From the NCBI GenBank assembly GCA_025920705.1, contig JAPDLJ010000009.1, positions 1 to 41,653 on the forward strand: 41,653 nt of DNA. The letters are read 5' to 3'. Of the stretch, positions 24,098 through 25,579 are shown piece by piece (within the stretch, counting starts at the first letter, position 1; each line of letters opens with the position of its first letter). The position numbers and the translations under genes were made by a program. This DNA is from Candidatus Jingweiarchaeum tengchongense. GTDB lineage: Archaea > Nanobdellota > Nanobdellia > Jingweiarchaeales > Jingweiarchaeaceae. The notes below the pieces were generated by a model. That model ran no database searches and was not told the DNA's origin. It saw nothing but the letters and a program-made list of their open reading frames with translations.

Positions 24098-24826
24098 TTA
24101 TCCTTTTAATAAGAACATTATCAATATACCCAGAATAAATACAAAAAAGATTGGTAATGATTTTTTCAAACTTATCTCTTTCTTTATTTCTGGTATCAGA
24201 TCAGTAGCAGCTATGTAAACGAAGCCACCTGCTGCGAATGGTAATAGAAAAAAAGATGAAGAAATTAGATTGTAATAAAGGAAATAAGCGAAAATGCCAC
24301 CAGCAATTGCAGCTAGCGCACAAATGAAATTAAAGAGTAGCGCTTTTGTTCTATTAATACCGGCATAAAGTAATACACCAAAATCCCCTATTTCTTGTGG
24401 AATCTCATGCAATGCAATTGCAAATGTGGTTGTTACTCCTAAACTTAAATTGGATAAAAAACTAGCTGCGATTATTATACCATCAACGAAATTGTGTATT
24501 CCATCGCCTAACAAATTCAAATAAGCGAATGTATGTATCGAACATTTACCATCATGGCAATGTCGCCAATGTAGTATTTTCTCAATAAAAAAGAATAAGA
24601 CAAAGCCGATTAGCACAAAGGAAAATACATTTTCTGAGCTTTGCTTAATTGCTTCTGGTATTAGGTGTAAGAACGCTCCACCCATCAATGCACCAGCAGA
24701 AAGTGCAACTAGAACTAACAGCATTCTTTTGAGTTGTTCTTCCTTTAATGCTAATGAGAAGACCCCGATGAAGGAGATTAAGCTAACAAAAAATGTACTA
24801 GCAATGATCAAAATCAAAATATCCAT
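24098..24826 (-). CDS. ZIP family divalent metal transporter
   Basis: 242 residues with eight predicted membrane helices. Metal-site helices IV and V are visible: DGIHNFVDGIIIAASFL and ALHEIPQEIGDFGVLLYAG. HLIPEA lies in helix II. The cytoplasmic loop HWRHCHDGKCSIHTF is a His/Cys metal-binding loop. It takes up zinc, iron or manganese. It is divergent from the DtxR-Feo operon, so both could be controlled from the shared 150-bp region; the palindrome at 24957-24972 lies close to the other gene. Confidence 0.9.
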   Translation of the reverse strand: MDILILIIASTFFVSLISFIGVFSLALKEEQLKRMLLVLVALSAGALMGGAFLHLIPEAIKQSSENVFSFVLIGFVLFFFIEKILHWRHCHDGKCSIHTFAYLNLLGDGIHNFVDGIIIAASFLSNLSLGVTTTFAIALHEIPQEIGDFGVLLYAGINRTKALLFNFICALAAIAGGIFAYFLYYNLISSSFFLLPFAAGGFVYIAATDLIPEIKKEISLKKSLPIFFVFILGILIMFLLKG

Positions 24827-24956: not shown

Positions 24957-24972
24957 TTTAGGTTAACCTAAA
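24957..24972 (+). promoter_or_regulatory. DtxR-family operator palindrome
   Basis: TTTAGGTTAACCTAAA is a perfect 16-bp palindrome ending two bases before the start codon of the DtxR gene. Its TTAGGTTA..CCTAA core closely resembles known DtxR/IdeR iron boxes (TTAGGTTAGSCTAACCTAA). Binding there would block transcription start, so metal-dependent autorepression of the regulator and Feo genes is expected. Confidence 0.75.
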
Positions 24973-24974
24973 TC

Positions 24975-25355
24975 ATGGTTAGTGTAAGGGAAGAGGATTA
25001 CTTAAAAAATATTTACGAGATTACAAAAACAAAAAAATTGGCGAAAACAAGAGAAATAGCAAGAAAGATGAGAGTATCTGATGCTAGCGTTTCTGAAATA
25101 ATTGCAAAACTTAAAGAGAAAGGTCTTGTAATAAAAGAACCATACAAGGAAATAAGATTAACAAAAAAAGGTGAGGAAATAGCCAAAGATACAATCAAAA
25201 AACATGAGACAGTAGAAAGATTTCTTTCTGATGTACTCAAAATTAAAAGAGATGCGCATAGAGAAGCTGAGAAACTTGAACACATAATTTCAAAAAAATC
25301 TTTAGAAAAGATGTGTGTTTTCTCAGATCTAAAAAATATGCTCCTAAAATACTAA
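24975..25355 (+). CDS. DtxR/MntR family metal-dependent regulator
   Basis: 126 residues. N-terminal winged helix (about 1-65; TREIARKMRVSDASVSEIIAKLKEKGLV) and a dimerisation/metal domain: H and E in KHETVE, then DAHREAEKLEHIIS. There DtxR's Cys102 position appears to be Glu, as in MntR; the second residue pair E-H is kept. It probably senses iron or manganese and binds the palindrome just upstream. The C-terminus stops early (at KMCVFSDLKNMLLKY), and the SH3-like FeoA domain often present in this family continues in the -1 frame. See the slippery site at 25331-25337. Confidence 0.88.
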   Translation: MVSVREEDYLKNIYEITKTKKLAKTREIARKMRVSDASVSEIIAKLKEKGLVIKEPYKEIRLTKKGEEIAKDTIKKHETVERFLSDVLKIKRDAHREAEKLEHIISKKSLEKMCVFSDLKNMLLKY

Positions 25356-25579
25356 AACTAAGTGAAATAGACACCTATCAAAAAGCAAAAATTGTTTTAA
25401 TTAAAATTGAAACAGATGAAATTTTGGAACGCTTGAGTGCGATGGGTCTTGTGCCAGGTGCAGAAATAGAAGTAATAAGGGGTATGGTAAAAGGACCGAT
25501 GATTGTGAAGGTAAAGGGGAGTAAGATTGCGCTTGGTGATGATATTGCATCAAAAATATTTGTTAAAGTGAAAAAATGA
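25313..25579 (+). CDS. feoA: FeoA domain, overlapping DtxR in the -1 frame
   Basis: The FeoA/SH3-like core is ILKLSEIDTYQKAKIVLI..LERLSAMGLVPGAEIEV..GPMIVKVKGSKIALGDDIASKIFV. The only usual start in frame is GTG 25313, inside the regulator gene, with no clear Shine-Dalgarno; it would put 13 unlikely residues (CFLRSKKYAP...) ahead of the domain. Either this is a separate FeoA helping FeoB, or it is the C-terminal domain of the DtxR protein reached by frameshift. Its end overlaps feoB by four bases (ATGA). The domain call is firm; its expression mode is uncertain. Confidence 0.75.
   Translation: MCFLRSKKYAPKILKLSEIDTYQKAKIVLIKIETDEILERLSAMGLVPGAEIEVIRGMVKGPMIVKVKGSKIALGDDIASKIFVKVKK
25331..25337 (+). 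other. Candidate -1 frameshift heptamer A_AAA_AAT
   Basis: In the regulator's frame the codons are CTA AAA AAT, giving A_AAA_AAT, a textbook X_XXY_YYZ slippery heptamer. The FeoA reading frame lies exactly in -1, and a slip here would join regulator residues 1-120 to the FeoA domain, making a protein of about 201 residues. No stimulatory structure was demonstrated. Confidence 0.4.

What the first reader, a model, noticed from the sequence alone, without database searches (positions are those of the whole stretch)
24975..25579. DtxR regulator and FeoA domain overlap in -1 frame at an A_AAA_AAT heptamer
The regulator stops early, and a FeoA/SH3-like domain, usually its own C-terminal domain in this family, continues exactly in -1. 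The overlap holds A_AAA_AAT in the right phase (25331-25337). The FeoA frame has no usual start except an SD-less GTG inside the regulator. A -1 slip would give a natural-length two-domain regulator of about 201 residues, while unslipped ribosomes make a 126-residue short form. That could tune metal sensing or provide FeoA for FeoB. A recent indel or an assembly error in the A6 run is the main alternative.
Basis: partly seen in the sequence, partly recalled or inferred. Interest (0 to 1): 0.72.

Follow-up and report, generated by a model that had tools for sequence, protein, structure and literature searches.

The report
Fused metal-sensor gene split by frameshift
In this uncultured archaeon, a gene that relatives carry as one continuous two-part metal sensor (a DtxR repressor fused to a FeoA domain) is broken into two overlapping reading frames, most likely by one lost base; the "slippery" motif nearby is common in this A-rich genome and is not good evidence for programmed frameshifting.

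Summary
A 126-aa DtxR/MntR-type regulator (24975-25355) is followed in the -1 frame by a FeoA domain (open from 25280, stop at 25579), and feoB starts at 25576. A_AAA_AAT lies in phase at 25331-25337. In the closest relatives of the operon (L190, L189/L095) and in Micrarchaeota, Hadarchaea and others, DtxR and FeoA are one continuous gene upstream of feoB. The window is therefore a frame-disrupted copy of a known fusion. Profile scores place the change of frame upstream of the heptamer, at the T4 run near 25318-25321: the -1-frame residues FLRSKKYAP match the family motif. The heptamer is ordinary here: 401 in-phase copies in 825 ORFs, five A6-type heptamers in this gene, a second one inside the overlap, and no stimulatory structure. 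Best reading: a one-base loss split the gene, leaving a short MntR-like regulator with an intact operator (TTAGGTTAACCTAA) and a FeoA made poorly, separately or not at all. An assembly error cannot be excluded without reads. Programmed -1 frameshifting has one exact archaeal precedent (S. solfataricus fucA1: same heptamer, 40-nt overlap), so it stays possible but unlikely (about 12%).

The parts
24957..24972 (.). Perfect 16-nt palindrome TTTAGGTTAACCTAAA, probable DtxR/MntR operator between TATA box and start codon
   Evidence: Exact match to the 14-bp TTAGGNNNNCCTAA consensus (PMC8464063); the only perfect copy in the genome; same motif just upstream of the DtxR gene in L190, L095, L035, L049, L033, L038, L013
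24942..24952 (+). Possible archaeal TATA box (ttaaatataa), giving a leaderless transcript starting near 24975
   Evidence: sequence inspection, inference
24975..25355 (+). DtxR/MntR-type regulator, N-terminal wHTH and dimerisation domains, 126 aa
   Evidence: PF01325 E 4e-16, PF02742 E 3e-16; best NCBIfam match MntR, below cut-off
25317..25322 (+). GTTTTC with T4 run: best-scoring place for the change of frame (one base fewer than in an intact gene)
   Evidence: Profile scores peak at 25313-25322 (191.5-194.0 bits against 189.8 at the heptamer; 129.2-129.5 against 126.2); PF02742 64.0 against 58.5 bits
25292..25298 (+). Second in-phase slippery heptamer A_AAA_AAA within the part open in both frames
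25331..25337 (+).
25280..25579 (+). FeoA / SH3-like domain in the -1 frame, open from 25280; GTG 25313 is the only usual start before the domain
   Evidence: PF04023 75.9 bits; frame read; only FeoA match in the genome
25576..27522 (+). feoB, ferrous iron transporter, ATGA overlap with the FeoA stop
   Evidence: TIGR00437 484 bits, Pfam FeoB domains
24098..24826 (-). Divergent ZIP-family metal transporter sharing the intergenic region with the regulator
   Evidence: PF02535 E 3e-42

Best explanation
The locus is an autoregulated metal-uptake operon whose first gene descends from a single-frame DtxR/MntR-FeoA fusion followed by feoB. Shown: the halves, the frame relation, the intact fusions in relatives, the operator-like palindrome. 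Inferred: one base was lost in the linker between the dimerisation and FeoA domains, most likely in the T run within 25317-25322, which moved the FeoA domain into the -1 frame. The 126-aa product keeps the DNA-binding and metal-binding/dimerisation domains, the same build as freestanding two-domain MntR-type regulators, so it probably still represses the operon at the intact operator. The FeoA domain is then made poorly or not at all, or from the SD-less GTG 25313 by translational coupling. The A_AAA_AAT heptamer is coincidental.
For: Intact in-frame fusions just upstream of feoB in the two closest operons (L190: FeoB 49%, DtxR 41%; L189/L095: FeoB 44-48%), in same-class L008 and L098, in Micrarchaeota L035, L049, L065, in Hadarchaea, and in other archaea. 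The joined window product aligns to L190 over its whole length, 38% identity, E 3e-46. All three profile tests put the switch upstream of the heptamer, where KMCVFLRSKKYAP (partly -1 frame) matches motifs such as KLDKLLKNPKTCP (L190) and KLRKFLKNPKCDP (L004). Skipping two bases scores below re-reading one, which fits one lost base. Heptamer at background; no structure. Stand-alone DtxR ORFs of 123-158 aa are common in the class, so a short form can plausibly work.
Against: Both halves are free of other damage, as expected if the split is recent, artefactual, or still expressed by some route. The site margin is modest (about 3-6 bits). No same-order relative exists in the collection, so timing and conservation cannot be tested, and there are no reads.
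Confidence: 0.53

Rival explanations
1. The break is an assembly or consensus error in the metagenome-assembled genome, and the organism has an intact DtxR-FeoA fusion gene.
For: Both domains otherwise intact; relatives are all intact or cleanly split; the error would be a single base in a homopolymer; this genome is a 40-contig draft, 92.5% complete.
Against: Few comparable broken overlaps in 1.11 Mb (8 of 364 pairs, several of them plainly separate genes), so indel errors are not common, though that screen finds only a minority of frameshifts because chance start codons hide the rest. T4 and A6 are short runs for the usual sequencing errors.
Confidence: 0.22
2. Programmed -1 ribosomal frameshifting at A_AAA_AAT (25331-25337), or at A_AAA_AAA (25292-25298), makes a minority of 201-residue full-length regulator beside the 126-residue short form.
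For: Exact archaeal precedent: S. solfataricus fucA1 uses A-AAA-AAT in a 40-nt overlap, about 10% efficiency in vitro (PMC8037382, PMC8211752). The heptamer is in phase and the product would be full length. FeoA has no SD-bearing start.
Against: In-phase A_AAA_AAT is in 35% of ORFs and five A6-type heptamers lie in this gene. No downstream structure (z -1.1, -0.6, -0.6). The break maps upstream of the heptamer. No relative with a frameshifted fusion was found.
Confidence: 0.12
3. A true gene fission: DtxR and FeoA are two working genes, FeoA being initiated separately at GTG 25313 or by coupling to termination of the regulator.
For: Same-class relatives have cleanly split versions with FeoA-like genes right behind DtxR: L099 with ATG overlapping the DtxR stop, L103 with ATG-ATG 20-23 nt inside the DtxR end and a GGAGG in front. 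FeoA-FeoB overlap here is ATGA.
Against: GTG 25313 is SD-less (upstream AAAAAATCTTTAGAAAAGAT) and would give a 43-nt overlap; the genome's SD genes carry GGTG/AGGT/GAGG. The closest operons are fused.
Confidence: 0.13

Closest known systems
DtxR/IdeR and MntR-SloR type metalloregulators with a C-terminal SH3-like (FeoA-type) domain
   Same: wHTH, metal-binding dimerisation domain, then FeoA/SH3-like domain; TTAGGNNNNCCTAA operator; linked to feoB
   Different: Here the third domain is in the -1 frame; the linker is short
Two-domain MntR (B. subtilis type) without SH3-like domain
   Same: The 126-aa ORF has the same two domains and aligns to MntR structures such as 1on1
   Different: Below the NCBIfam MntR cut-offs; descends from a three-domain form
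S. solfataricus fucA1 alpha-L-fucosidase, -1 programmed frameshifting
   Same: A_AAA_AAT in phase in an overlap of about 40 nt, archaeal
   Different: fucA1 has flanking rare CAC codons and a putative stem-loop and was tested experimentally; here no structure, and the break maps upstream of the heptamer
Split DtxR / FeoA-like / FeoB operons of the same class (L099, L103)
   Same: Regulator and FeoA-like domain as separate overlapping ORFs ahead of feoB
   Different: Their FeoA-like ORF has ATG starts at the junction, with SD in L103; the window does not

Membership tests
DtxR/MntR metalloregulator | N-terminal wHTH and metal-binding dimerisation domains | tested here: met
   PF01325 and PF02742 above cut-offs
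DtxR/MntR metalloregulator | DtxR-type operator at its own promoter | tested here: met
   TTAGGTTAACCTAA at 24958-24971, only perfect copy in the genome; motif shared by relatives
DtxR/MntR metalloregulator | metal-dependent DNA binding | not testable with these tools
   needs gel shift with purified protein
DtxR-FeoA fusion regulator | FeoA/SH3-like domain continuous in frame | tested here: not met
   FeoA is in the -1 frame
-1 programmed frameshifting gene | in-phase slippery heptamer in the overlap | tested here: met
   25331-25337 and 25292-25298, but at background frequency
-1 programmed frameshifting gene | downstream stimulatory structure or upstream SD-like element | tested here: not met
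   z -1.1, -0.6, -0.6; no SD-like sequence before the site by inspection
-1 programmed frameshifting gene | conservation of overlap and heptamer in relatives | tested here: inconclusive
   Distant relatives are in one frame or cleanly split; no same-order relative is held
-1 programmed frameshifting gene | fusion product detected | not testable with these tools
   needs proteomics or a reporter

The most novel reading that the evidence does not exclude
A cellular archaeal gene, possibly only the second after fucA1, uses -1 frameshifting at A_AAA_AAT to set the ratio of short to full-length metalloregulator in front of feoB.
Probability: 0.12. Interest if true: 0.65.

Novelty: new member of a known kind. 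Interest (0 to 1): 0.25.

Why it matters
If the split is real, it is a fusion regulator losing its FeoA arm within a class that also holds cleanly split forms, which bears on what the SH3-like domain is for. If slippage were shown, it would be a rare archaeal recoding case in a metal-homeostasis switch. As it stands it is mainly a caution: A6 heptamers in A-rich archaeal genomes are common and should not be read as recoding signals without conservation.

Tried and rejected
Looked for close relatives with the same overlap: the order search returned only the own genome; class and phylum searches gave at best about 40% identity. Tested every possible switch position by profile score. Tested skipping two bases (lower scores). 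Folded downstream RNA in three windows. One fetch from genomes failed on a length limit. Looked for a second regulator or FeoA elsewhere that could explain loss of this one: none above the Pfam cut-offs. A paper search for a described archaeal DtxR-FeoA fusion gave nothing.

Full report
What is there. The reported features are real. ORF 24975-25355 encodes 126 aa with the DtxR wHTH and dimerisation domains; the -1 frame is open from 25280 to the stop at 25577-25579 and encodes a full FeoA domain; feoB starts at 25576. The genome is a 1.12-Mb draft in 40 contigs from an archaeon, and the window is a whole contig. It holds one FeoA and one DtxR above the Pfam cut-offs, both here.

The ancestral form is a fusion. 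Of the 75 feoB loci fetched, many archaeal ones have DtxR and FeoA in one frame just upstream: Micrarchaeota L035, L049, L065; Hadarchaea L031, L033, L034, L037, L038, L040, L044; and L013, L030, L032, L042, L047. In the same class, L008, L098, L095/L189 and L190 are fused. L190 and L189 are the closest operons found (FeoB 48-49%). The window's two frames, joined, align to L190 over the whole length with 38% identity and E 3e-46.

Where the frame changes. I scored every possible switch point. With a profile of 62 relatives the maximum is 193.6-194.0 bits at 25316-25322; at the heptamer it is 189.8-190.8. With 21 nearer relatives it is 129.2-129.5 at 25313-25322 against 126.2-126.9. Independently, Pfam PF02742 scores 64.0 bits and extends to profile position 64 for the T-run version, against 58.5 bits and position 56 for the heptamer version. 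The reason is visible: KMCVFLRSKKYAP, half of it in the -1 frame and before the heptamer, matches KLDKLLKNPKTCP in L190 and KLRKFLKNPKCDP in L004. The evidence is consistent but modest. Skipping two bases scores lower than re-reading one, which points to one lost base. The T run is not a slippery site (tgt gtt ttc does not re-pair in -1), so it is the place of a mutation or an error, not of ribosomal slippage.

The heptamer is expected. In 825 long coding ORFs (306,275 codons) A_AAA_AAT occurs in phase 401 times and in 289 ORFs. The genome average predicts 0.03 per 25 codons for this one, 0.08 for A_AAA_AAN and 0.21 for any classical heptamer, but this lysine-rich gene alone has five A6-type heptamers in phase, about one per 25 codons. 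A second, A_AAA_AAA at 25292, also lies in the doubly open part. Folding of the downstream RNA gives nothing beyond shuffles. The flanking CTA and CTC codons are fairly rare (9.1 and 7.0 per 1000), a weak point in favour of pausing.

Precedent. S. solfataricus fucA1 uses exactly A-AAA-AAT in a 40-base overlap, with about 10% efficiency in vitro (PMC8037382 and PMC8211752). Those reports add flanking rare CAC codons and a putative stem-loop, and in intact Sulfolobales homologues the A run is one shorter. This keeps recoding possible and prevents dismissing it on mechanism alone.

Error or real? A search of 1.114 Mb for coding ORF pairs that overlap without a start codon near the junction gives 8 of 364 pairs; this one is the only clear within-protein split, several others being separate genes (for example what looks, from memory, like a pyruvate-ferredoxin-oxidoreductase alpha/beta pair on C34). 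The screen finds only a minority of true frameshifts, since chance start codons mask most; my estimate is about a third. It does suggest that the assembly is not riddled with indels. Reads are not available, so an error remains open at about one in five.

How it probably works. Upstream lies TTTAGGTTAACCTAAA (24957-24972), between a likely TATA box and the ATG of a probably leaderless transcript. It matches the 14-bp TTAGGNNNNCCTAA IdeR/DtxR consensus (PMC8464063) exactly, is the only perfect copy in the genome, and the same motif precedes DtxR in L190, L095, L035, L049, L033, L038 and L013. A working repressor at this site is therefore likely, and the 126-aa protein has the parts needed: two-domain MntR proteins repress without an SH3-like domain (established knowledge), and M. 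tuberculosis IdeR lacking its SH3-like domain still forms a stable dimer (PMC10317159). The FeoA domain may be unexpressed, or made from GTG 25313, which has no Shine-Dalgarno sequence although many of this genome's genes do.

Comparison with split relatives. L099 and L103 show that this kind of regulator has also been split cleanly: in L099 an ATG overlaps the DtxR stop, in L103 an ATG pair 20-23 nt inside the DtxR end follows GGAGG. Separate initiation, not frameshifting, is thus the arrangement seen in the class when the two parts are apart. The window lacks such a start, which is why I favour a fresh loss over a settled fission.

Verdict. Real observation, ordinary family, probably a single-base split or an error; programmed slippage is a minority reading that a reporter assay or reads could settle.

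Noticed in passing
window 24957-24972: Perfect DtxR-type operator palindrome, unique in the genome and shared by the promoters of distant archaeal DtxR-FeoA-feoB operons.
   Followed up: yes
window 24098-24826: Divergent ZIP-family metal transporter shares the intergenic region with the regulator; the operator is about 130 nt from its start, so co-regulation is uncertain.
   Followed up: partly
L103 (reverse strand) 1855-1965: DtxR and FeoA-like ORFs overlap by 20-23 nt in another frame, with an SD and tandem ATG: a clean natural fission of this kind of regulator.
   Followed up: yes
own genome C37, minus strand, L151 near 1411-1535: A Toprim-like ORF runs into the start of a DnaG-like primase gene in another frame (names from inspection), possibly a lost stop or frame change near its end.
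   Followed up: no
L200 and L201: FeoA matches in two same-class genomes have an in-frame TGA in the matched stretch; pseudogenes, joins of neighbouring ORFs, or something else.
   Followed up: no
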